NCBI GenBank assembly: GCA_030549335.1
Contig: CM060195.1
Location: 14,811,501-14,875,500 of the forward strand
Direction of reading: 5' to 3'
Length of the DNA: 64,000 bases
Origin: Pontederia crassipes
Lineage: Eukaryota > Streptophyta > Magnoliopsida > Commelinales > Pontederiaceae
This document shows, piece after piece, positions 28,452 to 61,865 of the stretch; positions within the stretch are counted from its first letter, which is position 1, and each line of letters begins with the position of its first letter. The notes below the pieces were generated by a model that saw only the letters and a list, made by a program, of their open reading frames with translations, had not been told where the DNA came from and did no database searches. A program made the position numbers and the translations under genes.

Positions 28452-28465
28452 TAATCCACTCCACT

Positions 28466-30259: not shown

Positions 30260-30264
30260 GTCAT

Positions 30265-33556: not shown

Positions 33557-33599
33557 GTCATTCTCTCTTGACTCGACGAGTTCGCTCATAGTGGTGGCA

Positions 33600-37370: not shown

Positions 37371-37422
37371 GGCGGAGGCTTTCGTTCGATGTCCAAAATT
37401 GCAACGATTGAAGAATCATGGT

Positions 37423-39143: not shown

Positions 39144-39450
39144 GTCCTAACAATGTGCTCATATTGTATATGCATGACACATCTCCTATAATATGACATG
39201 ATATGTATCCTTTGTATATAACTTGCTATATGATCTTTATTCTTATCAATCATGTCAACATTGTTAGGACATATCCATCAAAGAACTCTCTTTTGTTAGG
39301 CTCTCAGCAAGATTGCATAACATTTGATATGCTATATATTGCTATCTATATACTTATGTACAATATACCTCACAAAAAAATAAATAAGAAAACACCATTT
39401 AGTTTACACTCTGATTCAATTCTTATATGGTATCAAAGTGCCACTAGTAC
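39144..39450 (+). mobile_element. Outer copia element (copia-2), 5' LTR end and primer-binding site
   Basis: TGGTATCAAAGTGCC at 39428-39442 is a near match to the initiator-tRNA-Met primer-binding site (TGGTATCAGAGC) of Ty1/copia elements, so the LTR ends just before it at about 39,420. The LTR start is unresolved: TGTTAGGACATATCC at about 39,258 is one candidate. A 13-base inverted repeat (TGTCCTAACAATG at 39,144 and its complement ending at about 39,268) lies in the same place. The element resumes at 55,248, where a copia gag starts. Confidence 0.65.
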
Positions 39451-42154
39451 TGCAATATCCCAAATTTAATTTGCATATAATTAAATGAGTTAATATTTAT
39501 CATATGATTGATAAGTAATAAGATGTATGTGTTAAGGCATGAGTTTTAACTTAGTGTTAGATATATACATGTCCCTTAAGGTTTACGTTAAGGTCGGTAT
39601 ACATCTCCCTTATATTAAATTTGTACACAAGATCCAAACCAAGGAGCACCCAAGGCTAATTGAAGTAATTGAAGAAGGGGAGAAGATTTAGGGTTTTCAT
39701 TTCGGGTGAGTTCTTGCATAAATACTCTTTAATTTTAAATATATATGAAGTAAAAAGGGGTTTCTGAATCATGTATATCCTCTTTATTGAATAATTTCAA
39801 CCTTTTGGCGTGAAAAAGCAAACCCCATGTCTTTGTGAGAAGAATAAACCCTAATCGAAAGTAACCTTGAAGCTTCGAACTTAACTAGACTTTTGCATGC
39901 CTAAGGATTGTCCAACAATTATGAAATTTACCTTATTTGATCCTCTCTGAGTCTACTTTTATTGATATCTAGAATCAAGTTAATCAGATGTCAACAGATA
40001 AAGTTATGTTCCCTTCTTTAAGGTGCTACCATTCTGTCCGTCGAAACCATTACCTAATTTTGTAAAATATGTATTAAATCCAATATATTATATAATTATT
40101 TGGTAATTTAGGATAAGAAAGATATAGATGTTAAAACTCATTTATAATTGGAATAAGCATAAAAGGATATGTCTAATGGAAGTTATAAATTGTTAACTGA
40201 ACCTCACTTAGTTTGTCAAAATGAAACTTAGGAGAGATTATGTTAGTATTTGTTAAATTTATTGTGCTATGTCTAGAGGGATATAAATTCAAGAAATTTT
40301 ATGAGCTGCACTCTATACTTCTAGAGAAAATTAAAATGATTAGAATAAGCGATATTTACCAGTTTATATAAATCATAAAAGTAAAGTCACTCAATTTGAC
40401 AAAACACGAAAACAACATAAAATTTAGGTGGAATGTTGATTTTCCTGAGAAACTATAAATAAATAAAATATGAAACTTTTATATATTAATGCTTCTGTAA
40501 TTTGTACCAGACAAATTTGAAATGATGAAATTTGGCTATGAATGTCAGAAGATATGAATTTTACTTTACTATGTGTCCAATATGTCATAGTATAAGATCA
40601 ACTCTTGTGATAAATAACTACGTTATAAGATTAAATGCATGTGTTATGTAACCTTTGTAATCATCTATACTCATGTATGATATTTTAGGGATTAAAATAT
40701 AGCAGTAATATGATTGTTATTATTATGGCTATAGGATTAAAAGAGTCACGTAAGAAAAAAGGAGAAAGCCTTTTGATTTGTACTTCCACAAAGTAAGTTA
40801 TTTTCTCCTACTCTATATATTCACCTCTTATGAATTCGGTGTGACATTGATTGTTATACATTTTTCGTCCTTGTGAAAAGTATATCTAAATGATTATTTG
40901 GTTGTGCATTTTAAAAGCATATATTATGTCATGGATAGATTTTATAAAATGCAATCATGTTCCATCTGAATGAGTATTCGATATGATTCATCTTCTAACA
41001 TGTGAGGTACAATTGTTATATGATGAATCATGCATCTGCACGTATGGTGGTTGACGCTAAGTGCTACATCGCTGATCATGATGGGAACCAGTTCTTTTTT
41101 TTAATGCATCATTTTGTTCCCTAGAAATGAGATAAGATAAGATGGAGCTAAGTATTGTGCGGACCTAAGTGCTACATCGTGAGAAATCATGGTGGGAACC
41201 ACCGTATGGACCACCTCTAGAAGCCATATATCGGTTTCTGATATATTCTCCAGAAATGGGATGAGATAAGATGGAGCTAAACATCGTGCAAACCTAAGTG
41301 TTACATCATGAGAAATTATAATGTGAGATACCTCTAGAATTCATATGGATCACCTCCAAAGCCATCTATCGCTTTCTGATCTGTTCTCCAGAAATGAGTT
41401 GAGATAAGATGGAGTTAAGTGTCGTGTGGACCTAAGTGCTACATCGTGAAAAATCATAGTAGGAACCACCTCTAGAATCCATATGATCACACCTCTGGAA
41501 GCCATTTATCGAACTAGACAAATTGGCCAATTTTGATTTGTGCATTCATATGAGAGTGTTGCATCTGCATTCATATGCTTGATATGTTAAAGTTCCAGTG
41601 ATTACAAATTGAGTGTGATGCTTTTGATTATAATGTTTTATATGTAATTATCAAATGTATAAAAATACTTATTTTGATATTATGATAATATGAATTGATT
41701 ATATGGTGATACATAGGCTTTGACTTGTCAACTTACTGAGCTATTTTGCTCACAATGTTTCTAATATTTTTCATATCAGTATAGCTATTTGGATCACACG
41801 AGCTCATAATCTTAGCAGGGTTTATCTCCTTTGTGCTAAGGTAGTCAGGGGAGTTATTTCTCTCGTGTCATTTTATTAAGTTGTCGAAATAGTTGATTAT
41901 TTGTACTATATATATGTTATTTTGTACCTTCTAAAGAAGGATGAATGTTGTTGAATGTGAAACATAAGGTTCCCTTGGTCTTCTATGAAGAATGATAATA
42001 AATTGTTCCATATATTTATTGCTATTTATATGCCTTTATGTTATATAAAACATAAATTACATCATGTTTCCATATTCTTTCTCAATTTTATTTGATCATC
42101 TGTAATGAGTTAGAAGATCTAGATTAAACCATGATTTAAATCGGGGTTGTGACA
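39451..42154 (+). repeat. gypsy-1 5' LTR
   Basis: 2704 bp, from TGCAATATCCC to GGGGTTGTGACA. About 270 bp shorter than the 3' LTR after removal of its copia insert, because sequence corresponding to part of 47,610-48,040 is missing here. Bases near 40,190 (AATGGAAGTTATAAATTG) preserve the uninterrupted site into which copia-1 jumped in the other LTR. Confidence 0.88.
41058..41520 (+). repeat. Tandem repeat inside the gypsy LTR
   Basis: The phrase TAAGTGCTACATCG followed by GA(G)AAATCATGGTGGGAACC recurs at 41058, 41166, 41295 and 41432, spacing about 108-137 bp. Each unit also has GAGATAAGATGGAG and GCCATCTATCG. The same array, with fewer units, is in the other LTRs at about 54,253-54,580 and 60,554-60,840, so it is an LTR feature. 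Confidence 0.85.
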
Positions 42155-42839
42155 GTTATCATATGGGTGGGGTCAGTTTGGAGATTATAGTGTGAGGTTA
42201 TATATGTATTAATGTATGACCTTTCAAAATGTGATTGTGATATATGCCTTTATCAATTATGACCCTATGTATCGCAACCCTATACATTGGTTTGAAAAAA
42301 AGAGAATCATCGAGTACTATTTTGTGATCTTTATTCTTCATGGCAATGCATTGTATTCACATATAGTGTAATAATAATGCATAATATGAGATGCGACAAG
42401 TACCTTCGTTGTTGACATGATTGTTTTGTATTTGTATTAATTTCATGTGATTTTGGATTTGGATTAATATTCTTTTTAGTAGGAATGATTAGATTATTAC
42501 AAAGAAAACTATTTTCTCGCTTTCAGATTAACTATCATTTTATTTTATGAGTGATAGGGAAGTAAGTATATGTTTTCTAATCTATTACATGTGTATATCA
42601 ATAAGTTAATTGAGAGTTGAAGTGATGGTTCTTAAATTATTTGGTAAAGGAAAATAGTCTAAATAATGTTCCTATGTTTAAGGAATTCCCTAAATATATT
42701 CTAGAGAAGTGGTGTGTCCCCCTTGATAGAAAGAGATGAAAATCTATATTCCCCTTCCTCTAGAATCATTTCTACTTCCAATATCCTTTATTGTGTGGTC
42801 ATGGAATCTAAAAGAAGTATATGAGTCTTCATATGAGGG

Positions 42840-43020
42840 TTTTAGTTGGCCTACAACTACGAGCTTTAGTCTTATTCATTAAGAAGAAAGATGAGTCCTG
42901 CAAGTTTATTTATAGGCTTTTGAATCAAGTAACTATAAAGTTTACGAAAAGTAAGTTATTTATTTGATCTACAAGGTGCCCTTGTATTTCCGAAGCTTGA
43001 TTTAAGATTTGAAAACAAAA
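42840..43020 (+). pseudogene. Ty3/gypsy reverse-transcriptase remnant
   Basis: The plus strand, in shifting frames, gives FIKKKDESCKFIYRLLN, then LFDLQGALVFPKLD. These match the FVKKKDG...CIDYR...LN and LFDQLQGA...SKIDL signatures of plant gypsy reverse transcriptase. Stops and frameshifts are present. Downstream, 43,020-44,010 yields no block I can place. It shows that gypsy-1 once coded for pol on the plus strand. Confidence 0.8.
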
Positions 43021-44428
43021 AATGCTATATTTTAAAGAATGCATTTAAAACAACCCATGATTAATTTTTGTAATGTCATAGGATCATTTAATGCGTAACT
43101 GTCTTTATATTTTATGAATCGAAATTTGAAACTATTCTTATATTAAATCATAAATTATTTTTTTATGACAACTTAATTTGTTCATAGAGTCATACAAGTC
43201 ATGAAAACATTTGAACCCTAACCTTTACAAAACAAAATTGTGTGTCAAAATTAGTGTGAGTTTTGACATGACCATATAGTAGTGAGCCATGTTGGTTATA
43301 AGACAGAAGAATCATGTTCCTAATATGCAAGACCATTTGAGATACTGGAGTGAGACAATTTAAAAGCTTATCCCTCTCAAATGATCATGATGTGTTTCTT
43401 GTGCACATTTTAAGAAAACATGAATTATATTACTTACATATGATTTGGTATGTTCAAAACTAGTGATTTGAAAATATATCGTTTAGAAAGTGTCTAGTTA
43501 TTATCTTAGTTTACAAGAGACGTAGGACAACGAAGAAAAGTTCATACCCTATAATGTCATGTCATAAAAACTTTAGTCATATAAGGTATTATGTTTTGGG
43601 ATAAATACTTTCAAACAATAAGATGAGGGAAATATCTATAATTCATCCAAATGAAACAGGATATTTATATATATGAGAGTCAAATAGTAAGTCATTTTAT
43701 GTCATTAGCATTCTAATTGGAAAAGAAAAGCCAAACTATTTGGATTTGAAATACATAGATCTTAACAACTTTTTCAAGAAATTTTGGTTATATGAAATTT
43801 TGTAGGATCTCCACATGGATAGATTTTAGAGTCTATATTATACATGGTCAGGATATATTATGATCGAATGTATGGATAGGAAGATAGTGACAACAGATGA
43901 AGGTATGGTTATGAAAATCTAAATAGTCTGAAAATCAATTTATGAAAGGTGTCAGGTAAGATAAGTATAGCTTCAGTATGGTTTTTATGACAATCTTATA
44001 TCCTACATCACATCCCTTTCACGCATGTATCCGTCGCACTATCCAACCGTCCAATTGTAGATCGATGGTCAATGATGTCTAAAACATCAGCATTCGTTGG
44101 ATTGAAGCGAAACAACCCTGATTTAATAAAGCAATAAAAAAAATACTTGGCTGCTTGCACATTCATTTCTTCCATCACGATTGGTTCTTTTTATTTTCAA
44201 TAGATACCCCTCTGTCACACTCATCAAACGTCACTAGATCATGCTCATCGGATGTTGCCTTAATCACTTGCACTGGAAGAGAAACAACCCTGATTTAATA
44301 GGGTGATAAAAAAACCCTTGGCTGCTTGCACATTCGTTTCTTCCATCATGACTAGTTTCCCCTTGGTCACGCTCGTCCGTTGCCTCTATCACGCTCTCTA
44401 AACGTCACTTGGATCATGATCGCCAGAG

Positions 44429-44945
44429 TTCTACCATATGCATTATGCCCTTGCTGATCGTTATGATCAGGTAGTTAGTAGTAATATGCGGGAGAACACC
44501 CGTCTAGAACTCAAATCTTATGGTTCAAGCAAGCAGTGGATCTTGTCTTGTTTTTTAACCACCTTCTCCTTCAACGATGAACTCTTCAAAATCCACACAT
44601 GAATCAAAATAATATCTCAAGTTGGATCCGAGAGCTGTAGGATTGACATCTTCCTCAACTCTGGTGACAGTTCTGATCGCTTCAGGAAGTGTGGCATTGA
44701 TTCCTCATTTTCAGAATCAGAGTCTATATTGATGATGCTGTTGAAGTGAATCAGGAGTGCATTTCTTCTAGACTACATGAGAGATTGCTCGAATTGGAAG
44801 ATGAACAAATTTCCGAATTACATGAGAGCATATTGCAGAGAAGCACAAAGTCTTGGAGCAAGATGAACAAATTTCCATGTTGCGAGATACATCATTGTCT
44901 CACAAGCATGAAATTGAGCGTCTAAAAGATGTAGCCGTGGATACT
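44429..44945 (+). pseudogene. Captured NETWORKED (NET/KIP1) actin-binding protein fragment
   Basis: 44,429-44,540 translates to FYHMHYALADRYDQVV, then RENTRLELKSYGSS. This resembles the end of the NAB actin-binding domain of NET proteins (EEFYRMYRALAERYDQ-type, then LQSQGS). From about 44,730 a second piece, EVNQECISSRLHERLLELED followed after a frameshift by EQDEQISMLRDTS and HKHEIERLKD, is coiled-coil-like, as in the rest of NET proteins. Frameshifts and stops break it. NET proteins tie actin to membranes. It lies between the two inverted arms. The family assignment rests on one short block plus the coiled-coil. Confidence 0.6.
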
Positions 44946-44969
44946 GCTTGAACAAAACTGGGAGCTGAG

Positions 44970-45110
44970 CATGCTTCTCTCTCTCTCAACATGCTTCTCT
45001 CTCTCATTGCCAAGCATGCTTCTCTCTCTCTCTCACAGGGTGGTGTTCTCTCTCTCTTAGAGTGGCGTGTTAGGAGCCAAGCATGCTTCTCTCTCTCTCT
45101 CTCATATTCA
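44970..45110. repeat. AAGCATGCTTCTCTCTCTC repeat
   Basis: Four or five copies of (C)ATGCTTCTCTCTCTC with variable CT length, inside the Pack-MULE-like element just after the captured fragment. Confidence 0.85.
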
Positions 45111-46680
45111 CAGAGTACAAGTCATGAAATGGTGCAGTATATGCTACTCCTTACATATTTCGCTATATCTTGTGTCTTAAGTTAAGGATTTGCATGTCTC
45201 TTAATCTTATTTTCATGGAAGGGATAACTTCGTGTCTTATATATGTTTTTGTTTATTTTTGGTACATGAAATCCTCTTATATTTGATGACATCCTTGCCA
45301 TGATTGCTTCTTCATCAATGGTTCTCTTTTTTCCAAGAATGGAATGTGTTTAATGCTGTTTAGGGATAGATGGAGTCTCCTTTCGACATTGGACAGAACG
45401 TGATTGAAAAATATAACCAAAATACAATAAAACAGGACAAAGGGAGAGTTACTCACTCTTAACTAGAGAAGATGAGACAAATGTGCAATCCCAAAATCTA
45501 GGTGAGACAAACCGATGGAGAAGATGAAGAGATCCACTCAATAAAAAATATTATGCAAAATTACGGCCATCATGATTGGTGAGCTCGATCAAGGCGACAT
45601 CCAATCCACGTGATCCAAGTGACGTTCGACGCAAGTGATTATGATGGCGTCCAATGAGCATGATCGAGTGACGTTCGAAGCGTGACAGAGGGGTATCTAT
45701 TGAAAATAAAAAGAACCAGTCGCGATGGAAGAAACGAACATGCAAGCAACCAAGTATTTTTTATTTCTTTATTAAATCAGGACCATTTCGCTTCAATCCA
45801 ACAAACGCTGACATTTTGGACATCATTAACCATCGATCTACAGTTGGACGGTTGGATAGTGCAATGCATATATGCATGAACGGGCTAGGACATAGAAGCA
45901 TATAACTCATATATATATATATTAGTTTAATACATGTTTGAACTATTTGAATTAGATATGTGTGTAAAAAATTATGAGTTTCATCTCCAACTTTGAGAAA
46001 ATTGAAGAGGAATAAGATTATATGTTATAATGGAAATTTGGTGGGGACAATTAGTAAGGGAATAAATTATAATTTACTGTAACAATATGCGGTGTTATTT
46101 TAAGGACTTGGAAACATATGTGACAAAGACAAAAGATAACACCACTCAATTAAGTATAAAGTATAGAAGAACCGACTATCCAAATAGTTTAATGTTGAAT
46201 AGTGATACTTACTTGGTTGGGTCCAAATCATTTAATGATCAGTAAATTATCATCGGTAGATGTGAATCATTATTAATAATTTCCAAAGCATTGTGAATTA
46301 TTGAATTACTGTCGTTAATATTAGTTGGTTCTCCCCCTCCATTACTATATATTTCAGAATCACTGATGATTCTTGATTCATCATTATCGATTGAAATTCA
46401 ATCTTTCAGTATAAAGTTTTAGTTTGTCTTTGTTTGTCACATCTCACATTGTTCGAATGATGGAATATAATCATTATTGATCTAAAATTACCATCTTTGA
46501 GCATCAATTTATAGCTGATCCTTACTTCATTTTGCTTGTCCCAACTCACTTAGTATAATTGATTGAATCACCATTGCCACTCTTCTACGCGTGATAATGA
46601 TTTTTCATTTTGATTTTAGTATATCAACTGACCTTGAAAGTTTAAGAGTGGTTTAAAAGATTTTCGAAAGATGTATTGGA

Positions 46681-46820
46681 GTGAGGCTTCCTCTTTCTCT
46701 ATCATGGAGTGTTGGCTGGAAGCTTTGAGAAAGAATGATTGGAAAGGGATGTGAGGCCTCCTCTTTCTCTATCATGGAGTGTTGGCTGGAAGCTTTGAGA
46801 AAGAATGATTGGAAAGGGAC
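46681..46820 (+). repeat. 70-bp tandem duplication
   Basis: 46681-46750 and 46751-46820 differ at only two positions by eye. A single diverged copy (TGGAGTGTTGGTTGGGAGC) occurs at about 57,380-57,430 in the related gypsy-2 segment, so the doubling is specific to gypsy-1. Confidence 0.93.
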
Positions 46821-48627
46821 GTCTTTCCAATCTTCAATCACAAAGTCGAATCGATAAGACACAAAAGGTCACATTAATAAATCTTATTAGTGCTCAGAGT
46901 CTCATCGTTATTCTATCTTTATTCTGATAGACGACAAATGATAGTCCTGGCCAATGACTACAAGATAATCAGCGGTTGCCCATTGTTTAATATACCATCC
47001 TCCCTTCAATGCCATTGTCCAGTTATGTGAATATTGACATTTTCATTATTATCAGTATTATGTTTAATTCATGAAAGAATGTTGTAAGTAACTATAATGA
47101 ATGGAAATATCAAATGTAATATATGTTGTGGATTATATAAGTTGTTTTCAAACAAAATTAGTTCTGATGATCTGGGGAGCTGCATAAAAGAAATTATCAA
47201 TTCTTACTTGACTGATTTTCGAGCCCAATCCCACACTTACATATCTTGCCTTCCTCATGATGAGTAATGATAGAATAAAATTAAGTTAGGTCTCCACAAT
47301 GAAGCTATGTGACGAAACACTATATAAAAGGAAACATAATCACATTCTTAACCAAACAGAATAAATCCTTTGATCTAGACTGATTTTATTGTCATAGATT
47401 CTACAACGAGCAATTGAGGGCATTAAACAAAACATGTGTGACAATTATTCATATTGCTTTGAATAAGAAAATACATTAAATTTTGAGGACAAAATTTATT
47501 TTAAAGGGGGTAGAATGTAATATCCCAAATTTAATTTGCATATAATTAAATGAGTTAATATTATATCATATGACTGATAAGTAGTATGGTGTATGTGTTA
47601 AGGCATGAGTTTTAACCCAAAGTATTTGATCATTAAAATTGACAAAAATCGCCTAAGGCATGAATACGATTTTAAAATATGTTGGATTACGAAAATTAAA
47701 GTCCCGATAATTTTTAACCTGTGTTAAAGTATGCTAAATATGATTTTCTAATAAAATTTAAGTAAAGTCTTGGTTAGGTTAAATGATAGAGCAAAGTCGA
47801 AAGATCAGAAAATGATCGATCGGACAAAAAATGAATTTCAATACTTTTGTAATTTAATTTAATAAATATTTTATTTGAATCCAAATAGGTAGTATCTTCT
47901 TATTTATATGAGATGACTTAAGTAAATGAATAAATAAATAAAGGAAAGTACAAAACCTTTACTTATATGACTTTGGGTATTATATTGCCAACCACAAGGG
48001 TATTTTGGTAACACCTATATGACCGACCTCAAAGTCGGTATCCATCTCTCTTATATTACGTTTTCACCTCCTCTCTTCTATCATATCCTCACAAGACCCG
48101 AACCAAGGAGCACCTAAAGCTAATTGGAGAAATGGAAGAAGGGGAGAAGATCTAGGGTTTTCACTTTGAGTGAGTTCTTGCATAACTCCTCTTTAATTTT
48201 AAATATATATGAAGTAAAAAGGGTGTTATGAATCATGAATATCCTCTTCATATAATTTCAGTCGTTTGGGGTGAAAGATCAAACCACAAGTCTTCGTGAG
48301 AAGAATAAACCCTAATCTAACCTTGAAGCCACGAACTTAACCAGACTTTTGCATGATTTACGATTGTCCAACAATTATAAAATTTACTTTAATTGATCTT
48401 CTCTGAGCATACTTTCATTAAGTTATGGAATCAAGTTAATCCTATGTCTACAGATAAAGTTATGTTCTCTTCTTTAAGGTGCTATCATTTTATCATCCGA
48501 ATTTGTAAAATATGTGTTAAATCTAATATGTTATAGGATTATTGATAATTTAGGGTCGGAATGATACAGAGTTAGGACTCATTTACAACTGGAATAACTA
48601 GAAAAGAATATGTCTAATTGGAAGTTA

Positions 48628-48987
48628 TGTCTAAAATTAAAGGATAAACTAGAAAAATAATTCAGCACATAATAGAGTAATCAAGGAATAATTTTTGGAG
48701 AAAAGAAAATATCATTGCATGATATTCTGCTATGTTAAAAACCAAAATAAGATGGCCTATAAATAGGCTTACAACTTGAGAAGATGGGAAATAACATGTA
48801 GATCATGCCTAAAAAAGTGGGAAATCATACACACACTCCACCACTAACACACTACTACCATTAATTACATTACCCCGTAATCATGACTACCACATCACCA
48901 CAACTATCTACTAACTCCATAATTAATTTTCTTTTTTTCCAAAATACAAAATGATGTGAATAATATTTTTTGAATCACATTTCAACA
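48628..48987 (-). repeat. copia-1 3' LTR
   Basis: 360 bp. Its outer end reads TGTCTAAAATT where the other LTR has TGTTGGAAATT, a small rearrangement at the junction with host DNA. Confidence 0.9.
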
Positions 48988-48994
48988 CTCCCCC

Positions 48995-51900
48995 TTATTC
49001 AAAACTGACTCCAAGCATTTTTGTGAAAAATGCATGCTTGCGAATAGGAAGAGCTTTGGTGAACAAATATGCCATTTGTTCATCTGTACCACAGAATTCC
49101 AATTTAATTTCTTCATCCTCCACTAAGTCACGAATAAAATGATGACATATCTCAATATGATTTATTTGTCCATGCATAACTGGATTCTTGGTCATTGCTA
49201 TTGCTGATTTGTTATCACAAAACATAATTGTTGCTTCATTCTGTGATTGATGGAGATCCAACAAAATTCTTCTTAACCATATTGCTTGACATGCAGTAGA
49301 TGTAGCAACAATATACTCTGCTTCAGAAAATGAGAGGGCAACAGTTGTTTGCTTCTTTGAACACCATGAAATTGCTCCTGATCCAAGACTAAAAACACTT
49401 CCTGAAGTGTTCTTTCTATCATCCAAAGATCCTGCCCAATCATTATCAGTAAATCCAAATAATCTAAAATTAAAAACTTTAGAATACCAAATTTCAATGT
49501 CCACCGTGCCAGCAACATAGTACAGAATGCACTTGACTGCTCCAAAATGATGTTTTGTTGGAGAATGCATAAATCTGAATACAAGACTGACAAAAAAAGA
49601 GGTATCCGATCTTGTATGAGTCAAATAAATTAAACCATCAATCAAATTTCTAAATGTTCTTTCATTAGCATGACCTGTATGAGCTTTTCATTCACATTCA
49701 TAAGAGTGGCATCAGCTTTGCAATTGAGCATATTGAACCTGTCCAACAAATCATTAGCATATTTCTTTTGAAAAATAAATATGCCATCAGTATCTTGCTT
49801 CACTTCTATACCTAGAAAATAGTTCAATATCGCCAAATATGTCATTTCAAAATTTATCATCATGCATGTTTTAAAATCAGCCACAAGTAATTGAGAAGAA
49901 CTCATATATAGAATATCATCAACATATAAGCAAGCTATAATAAATTCAGCCTATTTTTCTTTCAAGTAGAGTGTTGGCTCAATTTCACTTCTACGAAAAC
50001 TATTATCAGTAAAGAATGAATTCATCTTATTGTACCATGCACGAGGAGCTTGCTTTAGGCCATACAAATCCTTTCTCAATTTGTAAATTGTCTTCCTTCC
50101 CATTGATAACAAAGCCTTCTGGTTGACTGACATAAATATCTTCATTCAAATCACCATTCAAAAAAATCTGATTTTATATCAAGTTGATAAACAAGCCATT
50201 GCAATTGAGCAGCTAAGGTTAAAAGTAATCTCACTGTTTCAAGATGAGTAACAGGAGAAAAAATTTCTTCAATATCTATACCTTGCTCTTGTGCATAGCC
50301 TTTTGCTACAAGCCTTGCTTTGTGCTTCTGAATGCTTCCATCTACATAATATTTAGTTTTAAACACCCATTTCAACAAATCAAAGTTTTGTTGTCAAGAA
50401 AATCAACTAACTCCCATGTATGATTTCTTTCAATAGACATCATTTCTTCTTTCATTGCATTGCACAATTCTTCTTTTGCCATTGCTTCTTCCAAGCATGT
50501 CAGATCTGAGACAAATAAAGCAAATTGACAAGAATAATATATTTCTTGCAAAGAATGAAATTTCCTTGGTACTGAATCAGATGAATTTTTTGAGAAATTA
50601 TTTCCACTACTTGGAACACATTCATTTCTTGCTGATGCTGCAATAATATTTTTTTCACCTTATGTAAGAAACTCAATTTGTAAATCAGCCACATTAGTTC
50701 TATTTGTTTCCTCCCATGTCCAACTGCATTTTTCATCAAAGATAACATTTCTACTAATAACTACTTTGTTAGTAGAAGGATTGTATAACCGATAAGCTTT
50801 GGATTGAACAGAATAGCCAACAAAAATATATTTCTTGGACTTGTCATCAAGCTTTTGACAATTTTCAGAATTGTTCAATGTATATGCAATGCACGCAAAA
50901 ACTTTTAAATGACTTACTTTCGGTTTGCAACCTTTCCATGCCTCATAGGGAGTCTGATTTTGCACTGCTTTTGTTGGAGAGATATTCAGCAAATATACTA
51001 CAGTTGTAACTGCTTCAGCCCAAAAAGTATTTGAAACATTTTTCTCCTTTTGCAAACTTCTTGCCATTTCCACAATTGTTCGATTTTTCCTTTCAGTAAC
51101 ACCATTTTGCTGAGGTGTATATGGAGCTGTAACTGTCTTTGAATTCCCTGTTCTTCACAAAAATGATTAAATTCATTTGATAAAAATTCACCAACTCTAT
51201 CTGTGTGCAAAATTTTTATGTGATAACCACTTTCATTTTTCCACCATTGCTTTGAATTTTTTAAACATATCAAATGTCTCATATTTCTGCTTCAAAAAAT
51301 ATACCCAATTCATGCGAGAATAATCGTCAATAAATAATGCAAACTATTGACTACCATTGAAGGATTTCGTTTGCATAGGTCCACATAAATCTGCAAGAAT
51401 AATTTCAAGAGGATACTTTATTTTCCTACATGAAATGACTTTTTGCATTACTTTTCAAAAATGCACCATTCACAAACTTCATCCAGAGAATTAATTTTTG
51501 GAAGACCATGAGCCATATTCATTCTAGCCAATAATTTCAGTCTATTAATGTTGAGATGACCATACCTCAAATGTCAGAGTTTAGACTCAGAAACTGACTA
51601 AACTAAAAATGCACAAGAATCTAAAAAATCCAAAGGAAAGATGCGATTTTTTTCCATAGAAATTTTTGCAATAATCTGTCCAAATTTCTTATCTTTGACC
51701 AAGCAAACATCATCATCAAACAAAATAGAATAACCACTTGCCATTAACTGTCCAATACTTAAAATATTGTTCTTCAAAGTTGGAACATAAAAAAATAGCA
51801 TGGAGAATTTTTTTCTTTACCATCATTCTACCGAATAGCAATTGTACCTTCTCCCTCAACTTGCACAACTTTATCATCTCCAAATCTGAGCTGTCTTTTC

Positions 51901-52040
51901 TTTGACTCATCAAGTACTTTAAACAATGATATCATTCCATTCATATGGTTAGAACAACCACTATCTAAAAACCATATTTCATTTGTATCATTAGAATGAG
52001 AATAAGTCATAAATAGCTTACTTTCCTCTTTTTTTTCTTC
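48995..52040 (-). pseudogene. copia-1 pol, broken (protease, integrase, RT, RNase H)
   Basis: Domains in order on the minus strand. The protease has WFLDSGCSNHM near 51,980. The pre-integrase and integrase region spans 51,600-50,660 and includes ARSLQKEKNVSNTFWAEAV and AFACIAYTLN-type sequence. Reverse transcriptase covers 50,378-49,640, with [30 protein letters not shown] and the catalytic YVDD at 49926-49915. RNase H covers about 49,480-48,995, with GFTDNDWAG, SEAEYI and FCDNKSAI. Frame changes or stops occur near 51,830, 51,600, 51,130, 50,660, 50,380, 50,150, 49,950 and 49,650, so no full polyprotein can be made. Confidence 0.9.
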
Positions 52041-52055
52041 AACAAAATTTGTTAT

Positions 52056-52895
52056 TTACTTTGCCTTGGTCCAACAATTTGCTTCAATGTGCCCACACTT
52101 CTTAAAATAGTAGCATTGAACTTTGCTTTTGTACTCATTTGATGGTTGTTGTCTTTGCTCATTTTGTCCATCAAATCTTCCTCTACCACGATCTCTTCCT
52201 CGGCCTCTTCCACGAAATCCGTCATGACCATGACCTCTATTGCAATCAGATCGAGGTGCTTCTGCTTTGATTTGAAAAGCTTTTTCTTCAGCTTTTTCTG
52301 TAAACCTGCTCATTCTTGCTTCATGTGCTTGCAAAGAACCCATTAATTCATCAAAAGAGAGTATAGATAAATCTTTAAACTCTTCAATTGCAACAGCTAC
52401 ATAATCAAATTTTGAGGTCAAACTCCTCAAAACTTTAGCAACAATAATTTTATCATCAATCTTTTCTCCATAAGATCTCATTTGGCTAATCATAGTAGTT
52501 GACAAAAATTCTTGTACTGACTCATTTAATTTCATAAACATCTCAAAATCTCGACAAAGAGTTTGCAATTTAACTGTGATTACCTTTGATGTTCCTTGAT
52601 ACTCTTTTTGTAATATACCCCATACTTGTTTTAAGGTAACTGCACCTGTAATTCTGTAAGAAATAGTTTCATGCATAGCTTGCTGAATAAGAAATAATGC
52701 CTTTGCAACTTTCTTTTTGTTTTCCTTTAATTTCCCTTCTTCATCTAAATCTGCATATCCATTCTTAACCAAATCCCAAGGGTCTTGTGACATAAACAAA
52801 GTTTTCATTTTGATATTCCAAAACTCATAATTATCACATTTAAAAATAAGAATCAAAGGTTGGGAGAAACTTACACTACCACCATTCGCAGTCAT
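52056..52895 (-). CDS. copia-1 gag
   Basis: I start at the ATG at 52895 (M-T-A-N-G-G-S-V-S-F). The frame is open for about 279 codons. The N-terminal part has YEFWNIKMKTLFMSQDPWDL, then the gag core (KVLRSLTSKFDYVAVAIEE, SFDELMGSLQAHEARM). After a stretch rich in Arg-Gly comes a CCHC zinc knuckle, CYYFKKCGHIEANC, in which the usual second Cys position reads Phe-Lys-Lys-Cys. The knuckle binds RNA; gag forms the virus-like particle. A TAA at 52058-52056 separates it from pol; in related elements the frame continues, so this stop may be a mutation. The frame itself is intact. Confidence 0.88.
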   Translation of the reverse strand: MTANGGSVSFSQPLILIFKCDNYEFWNIKMKTLFMSQDPWDLVKNGYADLDEEGKLKENKKKVAKALFLIQQAMHETISYRITGAVTLKQVWGILQKEYQGTSKVITVKLQTLCRDFEMFMKLNESVQEFLSTTMISQMRSYGEKIDDKIIVAKVLRSLTSKFDYVAVAIEEFKDLSILSFDELMGSLQAHEARMSRFTEKAEEKAFQIKAEAPRSDCNRGHGHDGFRGRGRGRDRGRGRFDGQNEQRQQPSNEYKSKVQCYYFKKCGHIEANCWTKAK

Positions 52896-53017
52896 AATTT
52901 GCTCCACACTTCTGCTTGTTGTGATTACTGATTAATTGCACTTGATAGCAATTCCAAATCTGCAAAATGACGTCTTCTCCTGCCCGAGTATTTCGCAACC
53001 TGCTCTAATACCAAACT

Positions 53018-53379
53018 TGTTGGAAATTAAAGGATAAACTAAGAAAATAATTCAGCACATAACAGAGTAATCAATGAACAATTTTTGGAGAAAAGGAAAT
53101 ATCATTGCATGATATTTTGTTATGTTAAAAACCAAAATAAGATGGCCTATAAATAGGCTTACAACTTGAGAAGATGGGAAATAACAACATAGAGCTCATG
53201 CCGAAAAAAGTGGGAGATCATGCACACACTCTACCACTAACACACTACTACCACTAATTACATTACCCCGTAATCATGACTACCATATCACCACAACTAT
53301 TCACTAACTCCATAATTAATTTTCATTTTCTCAAAATACAAAATGAAGTGGATAATATTTTTTGAATCACATTTCAACA
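53018..53379 (-). repeat. copia-1 5' LTR
   Basis: 362 bp. TG/CA ends are intact on both sides and it is followed directly by the primer-binding site. Confidence 0.92.
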
Positions 53380-55267
53380 ATAAATTGTTAACCAAACCTC
53401 ACTTAGTATGTCAGAATGAAACCTAGGCTATATTATGTTAGTATTTGTTAGGGATATAAAGTCAATAAATTTTATGTGTTGCTCTAGAAGGTAATACTTT
53501 TATAGAAAATTAAAATTACTAGAATATGTTATGTTTACTATTTTATATAAATCATAAAAGTAAGGTCACTGAGTCTGATTTTCCTAAGAAACAACCATAA
53601 AGAAATAAAATATGAAACTTTTACAGATTAATGCTTCTATAATATGGAACCAGCAAAATTGGAATGATAAAATTTGACTATGAATGACAAAAGATATGAA
53701 TTTTCCTTTACCATGTATGCAATCTATCATAGTATAAGATCAACTCTTGTTGATAAATAACTATTTAGGTTATAAGATTAAATGAATAAGTGCCATGTAA
53801 CCTTTGTAATAATTTGTACTCATGTATCATATGTTAAGGTTTAAAATATAGTAGTAATATGATTGTTATTATTTTGGTTATAAAATTAGAGGAGTTAAGT
53901 AATAAAAGAAAGACGAAAATCTTTTGATTTGTACTCATACAATGTAAGTTATTTTCTCCTACTATATATATTCACCTCTTATGAATTCAGTGGGACATTG
54001 ATTGTTATATGTATTATTATATGTTTTTCGTCCTTGTGAAAAATATATCTGAATGATTATTTGGTTATACATTTGAAAAGCATATATGATATGTCATGGA
54101 TGGATTTTATAAAATGCAATCCTATTCTGTCTGAATGAATATTCGATATGATTCATCTTCTAATATGTGCCTTTTGATGTGTGAGTTACAATTGTTATAT
54201 GATGAATCGTGCATCTATTTGTATCATGCATCTGGATGTATTATGGTTGGAGTTAAGTGCTACATCGCTGATCGTGATGGGAGCTATCTCTAGAGTTCAA
54301 TGCATCATTTCATTCCCTCAGAATGGGATGAAATAAGATGAAGTTAAGTGTCGTGCGGGCCTATGTGCTACATCGTGAGAAATCATGGTGGAAACCACCT
54401 CTAAAATATGTATGGCTACATATGGAAGCCATCTATCGCTTTTTATATGTTTTCCAAAATTGAGATGAGATAAGATGGGAGCTAAGTGTCGTGCGCACCT
54501 AAGTGCTAATCGTGAGAAATCCTGATGGGAGTCACCTCTAGAATATGTATGGGCTATCTCTAGAAGCCATCTATCGACTATACAAGTTGGACAGTTAGTG
54601 ATCCGTGCATTCATATGAAAGTGTTGCATTCATATGTTTGATATGTTAAAGTTGATTGCAAATTGAGTGTGATGATTTTGATTTGAATGTTTTATATGTA
54701 ATTATCAAATGTATAAAAATAGTTATTTTGATATTATGATCATTATATGTCTTTTTATCAAATGAATTGATTATATGGTAATACATAGACTATGAGTTAT
54801 CAAGTTACTGAACTATTTTGTCCATGTTTCTAATATTATTTAGATTAGTATAACTATTAGGATATCATAAGCTCATAATCTTAGCAGGGTTTATCTTCTT
54901 TAATGCTAAGGTATTTAGGGAATTTTTTTTTCTCTCATGTCCTTTTATTAGGATGTCAAGAGAGATGGTTACTTGTACTATATATGTGTTATTTTGTACG
55001 TTGTAGAGAAGGATGAATATTGTTGAATGTAAAACATAAGGTGTCCTTGGTATGCTCTCAAGAATGATCATAAATTATTCCATATATATATATATTATAT
55101 ATATATATTGATAATTATATGCTTTATCTTATATAAAAAATAAATTACATCATGTTTTCTCATTCATTATTAATTTTATTTGATCGATCGTAATAAGTCG
55201 CGAGCTCCGAATTAAACTATAGTTTAAATCAGGGTCATGACAAGTACGCTCCTTCTATTTTTCTCTC

Positions 55268-56775
55268 ATGGCATCGTCTTCTTCATCCTATGCTATGATG
55301 AACTCCGCGGTGGATTCAAGACCCTCTCTCGCATTGCCATCTTTCAATCATGTTAATCATGACTTGACCGTCAACTTAAAGCCCACCAACTATCTTCTTT
55401 GGAAGACTCGGTTTCTTTCTCTTTTCAAGAGCTTTGAGCTTGAAGGTTTCATCACTGGAGATTTTCCATGTCCACTGCTCATTAGTCCGGGATCGGCAAC
55501 GTCTCCTTCGTCCACTCTGAGCACAACGCAATTGCCTCCTCCCAATCCGGCTTATGTTGATTGGATTCGTAAATATCAACTACTCCTCAGTTGGTTGGTC
55601 GCTTCTCTCTTTGAGAAGGTTCTTCCTCATGTTGTGGGCCTTGAAGCTTGCTGTCTGGCATTCTCTTCATAAGGCATTTGGTGCACCTTCTCACACATGT
55701 CTTCTCTAGTTTACTATGCAGTTGCATAATCTCAACAAGGGGCTTCTTTGGTTTCCTCTTATCTTCATGAGACAAAATATTTGGCAAATGAATTGGTTGC
55801 AGCAAGGCATCCCCTCTCCATTCCTGCCTATAGTGCATAATTTTCAACTAGGGGACTGATTTTCATGATGTTGTCGCATCATTATCTTCTTGTATTGAAC
55901 CTATTGTGTTCTGAGATCTTCATACTATTTTATTGAGTCATGAAATTCGTCTAGCATTCTTGCATCTTGATGCTTCATTTCAGCCGACAGCCAATTATGT
56001 TCATGTTATGGCTCTAGGATCTTCAAATAATTCTACCAGACGGGGTGGACAAACTCAATATTGTGGGCATTGACGTACCCCAGCTCCTCATCATGATCCT
56101 TGTCCAATTTGCGGACATCATGGTCATAGCCCCTAAAAATGCTAGTTTCGTCATCCTAGCTCTTTTTCTCACCTAGTGACTACACACCAAAAGACACCTT
56201 TATGCTTGCTGCTCCTACTTCTATCTATGTTGCAAGTGTACCAACCTCCTTATCCATTGCATCAATGTCTACTCTAGGTGCTTACCAAGAGTGGATCCCT
56301 GATACAGGTGTGACACATCATGTCACATAGAACATTCATGCTCTTCAATTGGTTACAAGCTATACTAGCACCGATGGATTGCAAGTTGGCAATGGTATGT
56401 GTTTGCCAATTCATCACATAGGACTAAGGTTCTTTCTACTTCTACTAAAGCTTTTAATCTTAGCACGTCCCCTTTGTTTCTAAGTATTTATTGAATGTGG
56501 CTCAATTAGCGCCTGACAATTCTTGATATTTTGAATTTCACCCTACTTATTTTTTTTGTTAAGGATTGACGAACCCATCACATACTTCTTCAAGGGCCTC
56601 ATAAAGATGGTCTCTACAGTTTCCATGCTTCTACCTGTCTGCAATTTTCTCCTCAAGTCTTCCTCAATAGCTCTACTTCTACCAATTTGTGGCACCAGCG
56701 TCTTGGTCATCCATTTCAAAAGTTCTTCATTAAGTTGTTGTTGTCCATCATCTTCCTGGCTTATCTTCTACATCA
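55268..56775 (+). pseudogene. Outer copia (copia-2) gag, protease and pre-integrase remnant
   Basis: An ATG at 55268 opens a gag-like frame to 55,672 with a Ser-rich start, then PTNYLLWKTRFLSLFKSFEL and GFITGDFPCP, the copia gag (UBN2 type) signature. After a stop the series continues in shifting frames: WIPDTGVTHHVT (protease Asp-Thr-Gly) near 56,295, LQVGNG, FEFHPT near 56,530, then LLQGPHKDGLYSFHAS and LWHQRLGHPFQK near 56,690 (GAG-pre-integrase). The integrase core is missing: the series stops at about 56,775 where gypsy-2 begins. Its 5' LTR and primer-binding site are 16 kb upstream, across gypsy-1. Confidence 0.85.
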
Positions 56776-58459
56776 TCTACTTTGTGGGGACAATAAGGAA
56801 AGGAATAAATCATAATTTTATTATGAAATTATGAGATGTCTATATTTATAAGAAATTGTGAATATTTGTAAGCAAAACAGAAGAGAACACCACTAAATTA
56901 GGTATGAAATATTAAGAAACCAACTATCTAATATGTTTGGAGTTGGAAATTAATACCTTTGTTTAATAGGACCCAAATCATTGGATGGTTATTAAATTAT
57001 CTTTATTGAATGTGCAAAACTATCGATGATCTTGAAATTAATGTGAATTCTTGAATTGATATCATTGATATCAGAATCATTGGTGACTCCTTAACTTATT
57101 GCCGTCAATAACCATTCATCAATACAAAATATGAGATTATCAATGATTCTTGATTAATAGTCATCAATCACAATCAAGTTGACTATCAACTTAAGGTTGA
57201 TTTTCTTAGTTCATTGTTGTCTTTCACATCTCACCTATCACAAATGATTGATAACCAATGTAGACCTTTTAATATGACAATGACCTAAAAACTTTAAAAG
57301 AGTTATTTAGAAAGCTTATCAAAAGATATAAAGGAGAGGTCATTGATCGAGAGCTTGAGTGGAGCCATAGAATTCTCTTTGTGGAGTGTTGGTTGGGAGC
57401 TTAGCGAAAGAATAATTGGAAGGGGATGCTTTTTCAATCCTCGATCACGAACTCGAACTAGTATTTTACTATCGTAAACCCATAAGAAAGAAAAAGTCAA
57501 ATTTACAATTCATATCAGTGTTCACACTCTAACCTAGTTCCTATAGACAATAAGTGATTTTTTTTAATTGTTGAATGTGTATCATAGATTGTTTTTTTAT
57601 CCAATATGTCAATTTTTTTTTTCAAATGTTATGATCGACTTAGCTTTGGCATTTTACCCCTTATTAATGTTGTGCATGAGCCCTACTAAAATGTTTGAAA
57701 ATCAATGTTTATGTTTATTTAGACATGTATAAAATCAAGTATGGTATTATGACTTAAGGAGTGAATTATTTTTTTTGTTTTTGGTGGAATCTTAGACATC
57801 CACATCAAGTATGTCAACATTGTTTCAAAAATCTTATAATCACGAATATGGGATGGATCAAAATATGTTTTCTCTTTATCCAAATTATTTTTTTTAAAAA
57901 AAAGATGAATCAAAATTTGAGGATGAATTTTATTTATCGGGGGAAGAATGTAATAATCAAACTTTTTCTATAAGTTAATTAATCTATTCGAGAATTTATT
58001 CGAGGTAACCACTCTTCGAGTAATTTAAAATTAATTATTTAATGAATAACTAAATTGGTATTAGTTAATCTAACATAAGTGACACTAAGTTAATTTACTA
58101 AATATAATTAATTGTGAATAGAATGACTTAATTAATATGTTGGGGAGTGATCGTGTGCAATATCCACATGTTACTATCATTAGCTATAATTAAGCTAGAA
58201 TCAATTTAAATTTATTAGCTTGGCAATTTAACCTTTGAATGATTTCTCACTCCTATGTACTTTTGGCAATTCATTCTAATGGTAAGAGCTTTACTTGTTG
58301 ACAATTATTTATCTCTCCATTAATTAACTTAACCACTATTAATTAAATTACGTGCTACGTGAACACTAATTAAACCTGCTGAGACTTGGATCCACAACCA
58401 CCAAATGATGCCACCTATATCTTATTTGTACTATGCCTACAACCGCCTCAGGCCACTAC

Positions 58460-58490
<31 letters not shown>

Positions 58491-61476
58491 AATATCTAGT
58501 CATATATATCCATAAGTAAATTTTTTTTCTATCACTTATGCATATTAGTCGGAAAAAAGAGAAGAGAGAATGTTGCCTCTTTCCTTTTGCTATCGATTTG
58601 GGGAGAAATAATAAAGGGAAGAAAAGAATTTTTATCTCATGCTGGCCGAACCTACGGAAGGAGGACAAAAGAATGAAGCAAAACAAATAAAGGAAAAAGG
58701 CAAAGAGAAAACTACTAAGGTAAGATATGTAGGGGAATTTGTTTCAAGTGTCCAATGATTTAGTTCACTATAGTATTTGACTATAAGATTGGATTAAAGG
58801 GTTTTATTTAGCAATAAGTGCATACTAATTCAAAATCAAATAGGTTAAGAACTTCTGCTTGTTGTTTGTTATAGGGCTGAAATTTTGTTACCAGTAATTA
58901 AATATAAAAACTGCTCAAATAATTATAAAATTATATGACTTGGTCCTCTGAAAGTATAATTTCCATGGGATTTGAAATGATATCAAAATAATATACATAT
59001 AATATGTTGTCTGCAAAACCGTGAGCAGTTGTCGTGCTGTTTTCCAAAATGACATAGTTAGCTTGTAAATTATGTTCTTATCCATATCAATCATATAACA
59101 TTGTGAAACTTTTATGTGGGTTTTTTGCTTCTGTAAGATGCCTAATACAAGTGGAATAACTCAAAAATCAATTATATAAAAGAAGATATCAAATTTCAAA
59201 TGATTATGTAAAGTAGAATCCAAATATGTGCCACCGCGGGATTTTCCAAGATTTTTATATATAAATTATGAAATTAAGTTTGTCCTCTACATTCACTGAG
59301 CTTTGGAATCAGGTTAATCAGATATATGTAGAAAAAGTTGTGTGTTAATCTTTAAGGTGTTGTCATTCTGTTCTTCAAAATTATTATCTGATTTTATAAA
59401 TTATGTGGTAAATTATGTGTTGTCATGGAATTAAATGATAATTTATGGTCTTAGATATAAATGTGTTACTTTTCATTTACAGTTGGAATCATTGGAAAAT
59501 AATGTCTGATGAAAGTTATAAAAGTTTAACCGAACTTCCCTCAGTCTATCAGAAAGCAACTTAGGGTTGATCATGTTAGAACTTGTTAAATCTATGATTC
59601 TCAGTCCGAAAAGATATAAAAGCTAAAAATTTTATGAGTCACATCTCAGGAAGTCTGTTTTTGTAGAAAATTGAAATTACTAGAACAAGAGTTGTACTCA
59701 TGTCCTATTTTATATAAATGATTAACTTATGACCACTCAGTCTTTTGGAACACAAAAATAATATGAAATTTAGATTAATTGTTGATTTTTATGAGAACCA
59801 ACAATAGGAAAATAAAATATGAAACTTTTACGAATTAAGTTTTCTATAATATGGAGCTAAGTTGGAATCATTTGGTTTTATTATTTATATTTAGAGATAT
59901 GAATTTTATTTCATAATGTATGCAATCAGCCAGGGTACATGAACTCTTATGTTTAACTAATTAATTAAGTTATAGGATTAAAGGTATGAGGGGTATATAG
60001 AATTGATCATTATTGAGTCCTTGTAGGACATGTTGGTATGCACATCAATAGGATTGGAAGAATAATAAAGGAAAGGAAAAAGGAAAAGTATTTTGATATC
60101 ACTCATATCAGGTAAGTTGATTTCTCCTACTCCATGTATTCATCTCTTTTGAATTTGGTGTGACATTGATTGTGATATATATTGAATATGTTTTGAATAT
60201 GTTCTTATGAATATTATATTGGAATGGTTAATCGATTTGATTGTACATTAAAAAGCATATGTGATATGTTATGAATTGATTTTATAAAATACAATCGTCT
60301 TCCAATTGAATGGGTATTGGATATTAACACCTTACATGTATTTAATATATCTTTGAAAAAGTTCTGATGAGAAGTGTGTCGGAACGATTGACCAAGTGAT
60401 TGCATATTCAAAGGAATGTACGATATGTTATGGATTACTATTGTAAAATCCAATCATGTTTCTCTAAATTGAATGATCGATATGATTTATATTATGATAT
60501 CCGAGATATAATTATTATATATGAAACATGCATATGCATATATGATAGTTAGAGCTAAGTTCTACATCATTGCTTATGATGGGAGCCACCTCTAGAGTCT
60601 AATCCATCATTCTGTTCTCGAGTAATGGGATGAGATAGGCTGGAGCTAAGTGCCATGCGGAGCTAAGTGCTACATCATGAGAAATTATGATGGGAGCCAC
60701 CTTTAGAATTCGAAGGGACCACCTCTAGTGTCCACCTATCGTTATATGATATGTTTCTCGAAAGGGATGAGGTAGAATGGAATTAAGTGCTATATCGCCA
60801 ATCACGATGGGAGCCACCTCTAGAGTCTACCTACCGACTACTGATCAGTTGGTGATTTGTGCATTCATATGAGAGTGTTGCATTTGCATACATGTATTTG
60901 ATATGTTTTAAATGATATTGATTGCAATCGGAGTGTGATAATTTTGATTAGGAAATTGTATATATTATTTCCAAATATATGAAAACATTGTATAATTATT
61001 TCATGTTTTTGCAAGTCTCTTTGAATTAATTAGATGGTAACACATAGCTTATGAGTTATCAACTTATTGAGTTATTTTTGCTCATAATGTTGTTTCTAAT
61101 ATCTTTCATATTCATATAACTCTTTGGGGATCGTGCAAGGTGATAGTCTTAAAAGAATTCTATAACATCCTTGATGGTACGATGAGAAGATTTTTGTCTC
61201 TCGTATGTTTCTATTAAGATGTCGAGAGAGCTAGTCATGTTTATTACTTATGTTAAAATAAGTTGTACCGAAAATAAAGTCATTTTGTGAAATGTATGAC
61301 TTAAGGAGTATCGGTTTGATCATAACTTGTATAATTTGTTTAATTATATTTTTATTTCTTATGCTTTAATAAAAAAATTTACATCACGTTTCCGCAATCT
61401 TTCTCGATTTTATTTGATCCTCCGTAACGAGTTGCGAACTTCGATTTAAATCACGATTTAAATCGGGGTCGTGACA
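56776..61476 (+). mobile_element. Second gypsy 3' half (gypsy-2): internal end plus LTR
   Basis: 56,776-57,948 is a diverged copy of gypsy-1 internal DNA at about 46,045-47,515 (shared AACACCACT.AATTA..TA, GGACCCAAATCATT and TGGAGTGTTGG blocks). It ends in a polypurine stretch (TCGGGGGAAGAA). The LTR 57949-61476 follows. It ends GGGGTCGTGACA like the gypsy-1 LTRs and carries the same tandem array, but its first kilobase differs. No 5' LTR is visible. A possible imperfect target-site duplication is CTTTG at the left and CTATG at the right (61477-61481). Confidence 0.7.
57949..61476 (+). repeat. gypsy-2 3' LTR
   Basis: 3528 bp, from TGTAATAATCAAAC to GGGGTCGTGACA. It contains a TA microsatellite at about 58,457-58,478 and the LTR tandem array at 60,554-60,840. 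Confidence 0.75.
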
Positions 61477-61865
61477 CTATGCCTATCATGCTAGATTTGA
61501 TGAAATCACTTTTCCATACATTCTTTCTCCTTCATCCTCTCTTTCTTTTACTTCTGTAGTGTAACATTGGCTCACTATTAGTTCTGCTATGTCTCTCTCC
61601 TTTTCATATTTTGACCCTTTCTCCACTTCCCTCCCTCCTTCTCAGTCTCCCACCACTTCCTCTTTGGCAACTCATGTTAGTTCGTCGACCACCATGTCAT
61701 CTATTATTTTTGCATCTTCGCCATTTGATGCTGCTCCTTCCCCTGTGATGGCTCTTCGTCTTCGTAATCGTGTCGTTATCGCGTACTCGTAGGACTTGAC
61801 AAACCTACCGCCCTTCATGTTTCCCTTTCCTCATTTCCTTCAGAAACCTCATGTTACTCAAGCAC
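61477..61865 (+). pseudogene. Outer copia (copia-2) tail, integrase-RT linker remnant
   Basis: Begins with AYHARFDEITFPYILSPSSS-type translation, the R-H-x-x-F-D-E-x-x-F-P-F motif that follows copia integrase. After it come a Ser/Pro/Thr-rich stretch and MALRLRNRV (compare MxTRSxxG of copia). There is one in-frame stop in between. It is cut at about 61,865 by another LTR. Together with 55,268-56,775 it shows that gypsy-2 sits inside copia-2. Confidence 0.7.

What the first reader, a model, noticed from the sequence alone, without database searches (positions are those of the whole stretch)
39144..61865. Nested retrotransposon stack with at least three levels, readable from target-site duplications
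A copia element is split by gypsy-1 (AGTAC on both sides), which holds a Pack-MULE-like element in its interior and copia-1 in its 3' LTR; gypsy-2 splits the outer copia again further on. Removing 39,451-55,247 joins the copia primer-binding site at 39,428 to its gag ATG at 55,268. The intact LTR also preserves copia-1's empty site. The order of events can be read directly.
Basis: partly seen in the sequence, partly recalled or inferred. Interest (0 to 1): 0.75.

Follow-up and report, generated by a model that had tools for sequence, protein, structure and literature searches.

The report
Nested transposon stack predating chromosome duplication
An old jumping element in a plant chromosome was split again and again by younger ones, and a second chromosome carries an older version of the same stack, so one can see which insertions came before and which after the two copies parted; it is a well-preserved example of an ordinary process.

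Summary
The nest is real. Gypsy-1 (39,451-55,242) lies between two AGTAC copies inside a copia element; at 6 of 6 other places found in the genome the copia leader runs uninterrupted across that join.

Corrections: the outer copia starts at 39,262 and ends at 67,821, beyond the window, with AACAT on both sides. Gypsy-2 is 5'-truncated and about 690-790 bp of copia are missing at its left edge. An unreported 3.05-kb LTR-like insertion (61,870-64,920) splits the copia again, and a Helitron-like insert sits in its 3' LTR (66,100-67,808). Pack-MULE edges are about 44,001-45,911.

Main new result: a duplicated copy on contig C14 shares gypsy-1, truncated gypsy-2 and the fourth insertion, but lacks copia-1, the Pack-MULE and the Helitron-like insert. 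LTR distances agree with the order: copia-2 0.20, gypsy-1 0.19, C13/C14 split 0.085, copia-1 0.072, although copia-1 versus split is not significant. One C14-only element breaks the LTR clock: its LTR distance, 0.13, exceeds the split.

A known kind of structure with an unusually legible history.

The parts
39257..39261 (+). target-site duplication AACAT of the outer copia (copia-2); its partner lies at 67,822-67,826, outside the window
39262..39427 (+). 5' LTR of copia-2, followed by the primer-binding site at 39,428
39446..39450 (+). AGTAC, left target-site duplication of gypsy-1
   Evidence: single AGTAC at the uninterrupted site in L012, L013, L014
39451..42154 (+). 5' LTR of gypsy-1; keeps copia-1's empty site near 40,184
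42155..47515 (+). interior of gypsy-1, about 3.45 kb without the Pack-MULE; no recognisable gag or pol domain
   Evidence: 16 of 16 ORFs of 45 aa or more outside the MULE scanned, none reaches a Pfam cut-off
44001..45911 (+). Pack-MULE-like element with long terminal inverted repeats and a captured fragment of a KIP1-domain gene (44,426-44,804 and 44,825-44,948)
47516..48627 (+). 3' LTR of gypsy-1, part before copia-1
48628..53379 (-). copia-1 (gag, integrase SH3, RT pieces on the minus strand), LTRs 48,628-48,987 and about 53,018-53,379
53380..55242 (+). 3' LTR of gypsy-1, part after copia-1
55243..55247 (+). AGTAC, right target-site duplication of gypsy-1
55248..56779 (+). copia-2: gag start (ATG 55,268) to GAG-pre-integrase domain, many stops
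56780..61476 (+). gypsy-2 remnant: 3' part of the interior (56,780-58,155) and one LTR (58,156-61,476); 5' LTR and most of the interior missing; about 690-790 bp of copia-2 lost at the left edge
61477..61869 (+). copia-2 piece after the integrase core
61870..64000 (+). fourth insertion, a 3.05-kb LTR-like element without recognised coding sequence that continues to 64,920; flanked by CAAGC and TCAGC where relatives read CCAGC or CTAGC

Best explanation
An old copia element (39,262-67,821) was split in turn by gypsy-1, by gypsy-2 and by an LTR-like element, all before the chromosome segment was duplicated on contigs C13 and C14 (most likely a recent polyploidy). A deletion that took gypsy-2's 5' part and part of the copia also came before the duplication. 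After the copies parted, copia-1 landed in gypsy-1's 3' LTR, a Pack-MULE in its interior and a Helitron-like element in the copia's 3' LTR on C13, while C14 gained its own insertions and deletions. Each insertion worked in the ordinary way of its class (integrase, transposase or rolling-circle). Shown: continuity of relatives, empty sites, shared and unshared insertions. Inferred: that the duplication is a polyploidy, and the mechanism of the gypsy-2 truncation.
For: Continuity across 39,450/55,248 in 6 of 6 other places. C14 copy: gypsy-1 5' LTR and interior (40,551-44,001 at 90.9%), 45,914-46,294 directly after it (no MULE), 46,290-48,628 then 53,380-54,407 directly (no copia-1), the gypsy-2 left edge and right edge and the fourth insertion, all collinear. 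The best match of gypsy-1's interior in the genome is C14 at 93%, next 78% or less. LTR tree: 3' LTRs of C13 and C14 pair (100/99) and 5' LTRs pair (89/92), so gypsy-1 had inserted before the split. Distances: gypsy-1 LTRs 0.191 +- 0.010 over 2,242 sites against split 0.085 +- 0.003 over 13,297 sites, 2000 of 2000 bootstraps. A neighbouring PRONE gene has its closest copy, 97%, on C14 about 120 kb away. MULE empty site at 5 of 5 places listed for both sides.
Against: Both outer junctions of gypsy-1 are deleted on C14, so its sharing rests on LTRs and interior, not on junctions. The 5'-LTR pairing is below the tree tool's 95 mark. Copia-1's LTR distance (0.072 +- 0.015) is below the split in only 1599 of 2000 bootstraps, so its lateness rests on the empty site. 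A C14-only LTR element with a clean ATTGT duplication has LTR distance 0.13, more than the split, which contradicts a uniform LTR clock. The PRONE gene and the nest have opposite relative orientation on C14, so an inversion must be assumed. MULEs can excise, so its absence on C14 is not by itself proof of late arrival. The order of gypsy-1, gypsy-2 and the fourth insertion among themselves is not resolved.
Confidence: 0.9

Rival explanations
1. The C13 and C14 copies arose by a local segmental duplication or translocation of this stretch, not by doubling of whole chromosomes; the order of insertions is the same.
For: Collinearity was followed only from window 28,443 to 68,357; orientation differs between the PRONE gene and the nest.
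Against: The PRONE gene 36 kb away is also best matched on C14 at 97%, and other genes repeatedly hit neighbouring contig numbers in pairs at equal identity (C5/C6 75/75, C11/C12 67/68; C9/C10 88/87).
Confidence: 0.1
2. Copia-1 and the Pack-MULE were present before the split and were lost from C14 by precise deletion or by copying of an empty copy.
For: DNA transposons excise; copia-1's LTR distance is not significantly below the split.
Against: LTR elements have no known precise excision (recalled); the C14 sites read like the unoccupied sites in the other gypsy-1 LTR and in four unlinked family members; two independent exact losses would be needed.
Confidence: 0.05
3. Gypsy-2 never had a 5' half here: it integrated as a truncated copy together with a deletion of target DNA, rather than being truncated later.
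For: The left junction joins copia directly to gypsy interior, with the same junction on C14, so it formed before the split.
Against: 5'-truncated integration is unusual for LTR elements (recalled); a later deletion across the left edge explains both losses at once.
Confidence: 0.15

Closest known systems
Nested LTR retrotransposons of maize and other grasses (Du, Swigonova and Messing 2006, PMC1560396: abstract and the section on nested elements read)
   Same: LTR elements inside LTR elements; a three-layer nest at orp1; a solo LTR nested in another element; inserts that include gene fragments
   Different: Here a duplicated locus in the same genome splits the insertions into before and after
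Survey of nested and original LTR pairs (PMC7251063: passages seen)
   Same: Nesting as absolute relative age; about one fourth of nested elements have more diverged LTRs than their host, blamed on gene conversion
   Different: Here the anomaly is a C14-only insertion more diverged than the split itself, with a strong transition excess (118 to 25)
Nesting preferences (PMC6911290: abstract and section list seen)
   Same: Gypsy elements nest often, also into their own kind of target
   Different: Copia-1 sits in an LTR, a location that the abstract calls not commonly targeted
Pack-MULEs
   Same: Long terminal inverted repeats and a captured host gene fragment without transposase domain in what was scanned
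   Different: No clear 9-11 bp target duplication in the AT-rich flanks
Helitrons (PMC3288121: one passage seen)
   Same: 3' CTAG, hairpin 9 bases upstream, insertion before a T, many relatives that stop at the same 3' end
   Different: No TC at the 5' end could be recognised

Membership tests
LTR retrotransposon, Ty1/copia (outer copia-2) | LTRs, 5-bp target duplication, PBS | tested here: met
   LTRs 39,262-39,427 and about 65,941-67,821, AACAT both sides, PBS at 39,428
LTR retrotransposon, Ty1/copia (outer copia-2) | gag, pre-integrase, integrase, then RT | tested here: inconclusive
   GAG-pre-integrase 29.3 bits (cut-off 28.4) and RVT_2 22.3 bits, below its cut-off 31.6, in copia order; integrase core missing from this copy
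LTR retrotransposon, Ty1/copia (copia-1) | gag, integrase before RT, LTRs | tested here: met
   Retrotran_gag_2, SH3_retrovirus, RVT_2 in this order on the minus strand; rve weak; LTRs 93%
LTR retrotransposon, Ty1/copia (copia-1) | 5-bp target duplication | tested here: not met
   only 1 bp overlap against the empty site
LTR retrotransposon (gypsy-1) | LTRs, target duplication, PPT | tested here: met
   AGTAC, LTR pair, AAAGGGGGTAG before the 3' LTR on C13 and C14
Ty3/gypsy superfamily (gypsy-1) | RT before integrase | tested here: inconclusive
   no pol domain in 16 of 16 ORF pieces; gypsy label rests on a recalled 3'-end motif; non-autonomous, LARD-like
Pack-MULE | long TIRs | tested here: met
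   TIRs about 85% identical over 258 bp, family of relatives
Pack-MULE | captured host gene fragment | tested here: met
   88% to a 560-aa ORF with a KIP1 domain on C9
Pack-MULE | 9-11 bp target duplication | tested here: inconclusive
   AT-rich edges, no clear repeat
Solo LTR (fourth insertion) | one LTR flanked by a target duplication, no interior | tested here: inconclusive
   CAAGC/TCAGC, CCAGC or CTAGC in relatives; no internal repeat; 2 of its ORF pieces scanned, no domain
Helitron (66,100-67,808) | 3' CTRR with upstream hairpin, A|T target | tested here: met
   CTAG, hairpin z -2.8, T follows; C14 reads GA|TTC; 24 of 54 non-self rows end within two bases of CTAG
Helitron (66,100-67,808) | 5' TC | tested here: inconclusive
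   AT-repeat at the left edge

The most novel reading that the evidence does not exclude
The locus is a stratified clock: one duplication date cuts through a stack of seven mobile-element events, and it shows that LTR divergence runs at unequal speed in neighbouring elements (a post-split element with LTR distance 0.13 beside a split of 0.085). Such shared nests across a polyploid genome could calibrate, or falsify, LTR dating family by family.
Probability: 0.5. Interest if true: 0.45.

Novelty: new member of a known kind. Interest (0 to 1): 0.33.

Why it matters
Nested elements are common in plant genomes. This one is useful because the same nest survives on a second chromosome, so the order of insertions is tested by presence and absence and not only by LTR divergence. 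It gives a worked case where the popular LTR clock fails for one element and holds for others.

Tried and rejected
Rejected: that the AGTAC match is chance (relatives show a single AGTAC at the uninterrupted site). Rejected: gypsy-2 as a full element (only one LTR and a short interior). Rejected: 39,144 as LTR start; 39,142-39,156 is a 15-bp inverted copy of the stretch across the true LTR start, left unexplained. Rejected: the 226-base step between the captured pieces as an intron; in L031 the ORF runs through it, so it is a deletion in the captured copy. No target duplication could be made out for the MULE. Ages in years were not given, since species and rate are unknown. Display filters: self and cross BLAST rows under 60-80 bp (and, under 90 bits) were not printed. 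In one search alignment pieces were chosen by hand from BLAST blocks; one search pools 13 of them for the nest and leaves out the copia-2 LTR pair (0.079) and gives the three flank pieces apart (0.113). The whole-genome searches score only the best 40 candidates (of 316, 496, 497, 885 and 154), so family sizes are lower bounds. 18 ORF pieces inside the MULE were not scanned. One search failed by a script error and was rerun. Paper searches; PMC3903597 was seen as abstract and section list. No claim is made that such shared nests are absent from print.

Full report
What was claimed and what is there. The window is C13:14,811,501-14,875,500 of a 1.13-Gb genome in 43 contigs; it is a plant by its PRONE and KIP1 gene domains (inference). 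Gypsy-1 runs from 39,451 to 55,242 between two AGTAC copies. Its two LTRs, 39,451-42,154 and 47,516-55,242 without copia-1, are 83% identical over 2,242 aligned sites. Copia-1 (48,628-53,379, minus strand) lies in the 3' LTR; the matching place in the 5' LTR, and on C14, reads straight through. It lacks a 5-bp duplication: left and right flanks overlap the empty site by one base only.

The outer copia. In relatives on C12, C10 and C3 (L012, L013, L014) the LTR and primer-binding site run directly into gag where the window has gypsy-1. A 143-base query of the two joined flanks gave 8 rows: the window's own two halves and 6 other places, all 6 continuous across the join at 73-84% identity. Compared with these relatives, the window's copia consists of 39,262-39,450, 55,248-56,779, 61,477-61,869, then 64,921 on, with its 3' LTR interrupted by another insert and ending at 67,821; AACAT flanks both ends.

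Gypsy-2. Only 1.4 kb of its interior and one LTR (58,156-61,476) remain. Its left edge joins copia sequence directly to gypsy interior, and 690-786 bp of copia present in four relatives are missing (L012 786, L013 693, L014 704, L015 690). The same left and right edges occur on C14, so this loss is older than the split.

The fourth insertion, 61,870-64,920, belongs to a numerous family (885 candidates, 40 scored). It has no internal repeat and no Pfam domain in the two ORF pieces scanned; flanks CAAGC and TCAGC compare with CCAGC and CTAGC in two relatives with the site intact, while L014 has a deletion there. A solo LTR is the likeliest reading.

The Pack-MULE. Relatives of gypsy-1's interior stop at 43,990-44,001 on the left in 31 of 53 non-self rows and none goes beyond 44,001; on the right 35 of 39 non-self rows start at 45,902-45,916 and none earlier. 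At 5 of 5 places listed in both searches the two sides lie side by side (C14:47.32, C9:51.97, C13:18.05, C15:26.67, C16:43.56 Mb). Hence the element is about 44,001-45,911. It holds two stretches 88% identical to an ORF of 560 aa with a KIP1 domain on C9, and its counterpart on C10.

The C14 copy. C14:47,298,501-47,338,500, reversed, is collinear with window 28,443-34,476 and 40,551-68,357 apart from gains and losses. Shared: gypsy-1 LTRs and interior, both gypsy-2 edges, the fourth insertion, the copia pieces. Missing on C14 with uninterrupted sequence: the Pack-MULE, copia-1, and the 66,100-67,808 insert. Deleted on C14: 34,477-40,550 and 54,408-55,585, which removes both outer junctions of gypsy-1. 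Only on C14: an LTR element at 46,290 with ATTGT on both sides, a 3.2-kb insert in the fourth element with a 13-base flank repeat, and a 0.4-kb insert at 65,352. The PRONE gene at 2.5-4.6 kb has its closest copy, 97%, at C14:47.179 Mb; the next are C5 and C6 at 75%.

Dates in relative terms. Kimura distances: C13/C14 nest 0.0847 +- 0.0027 (13,297 sites, 13 pieces, range 0.042-0.118); flanks 0.113; gypsy-1 5' against 3' LTR 0.191 +- 0.010; copia-2 LTRs 0.203 +- 0.045 (130 sites); copia-1 LTRs 0.072 +- 0.015 (354 sites). Gypsy-1 exceeds the split in 2000 of 2000 bootstraps; copia-1 falls below it in 1599 of 2000, which is no proof. In a tree with gypsy-2 LTRs as outgroup, C13 and C14 3' LTRs pair (100/99) and 5' LTRs pair (89/92). 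Against the clock: the C14-only LTR element has LTR distance 0.1315 +- 0.0116 with 118 transitions to 25 transversions, above the split although C13 has no trace of it. Faster decay of a methylated element is my reading; a long-lived polymorphism before the split is the alternative.

Coding content. Copia-1 has gag, integrase SH3 and RT pieces in copia order. Gypsy-1's interior shows no Pfam domain above cut-off in 16 of 16 ORF pieces of at least 45 aa outside the MULE (two sub-cut-off hits judged chance), so it is a non-autonomous, LARD-like element (term recalled), and 'gypsy' rests on a recalled 3'-end motif and PPT.

Verdict. Three levels of nesting are real (outer copia; gypsy-1; copia-1 and Pack-MULE), with gypsy-2, a fourth and a Helitron-like insertion beside them at level two. 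Such nests are ordinary: PMC1560396 (abstract and one section) describes a three-layer nest in maize. The added value is the second copy, which turns a reading of order into a tested one.

Noticed in passing
L009:6100-7808 (window coordinates 66,100-67,808, outside the window): Helitron-like insert in the last bases of copia-2's 3' LTR, absent on C14; ends in a hairpin and CTAG, with a 119-bp tandem repeat near the end; 24 of 54 non-self family rows end within two bases of CTAG.
   Followed up: partly
L051-L052 and L050, C14:47,316,321-47,321,382: C14-only LTR element with a clean ATTGT duplication whose LTRs (distance 0.13, transitions 118 to transversions 25) are more diverged than the C13/C14 split.
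   Followed up: partly
window 39142-39156 and 39258-39272: Exact 15-bp inverted repeat whose right arm spans the start of copia-2's LTR; origin unexplained.
   Followed up: no
window 2488-4556 and C14:47,179,079-47,181,148: PRONE (Rop exchange factor) gene with a 97% copy on C14 on the plus strand, while the nest on C14 is on the minus strand: an inversion with one breakpoint between about 4.6 and 28.4 kb of the window.
   Followed up: no
L049, C14 about 47,302,065-47,305,236: 3.2-kb C14-only insert inside the fourth element with a 13-base flank repeat and a (TTG)-rich end, perhaps a non-LTR retrotransposon.
   Followed up: no
window 21452-22279 and 37422-38160: Tandem duplications outside the nest: 419 bp at 99% and about 378 bp at 92%.
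   Followed up: no
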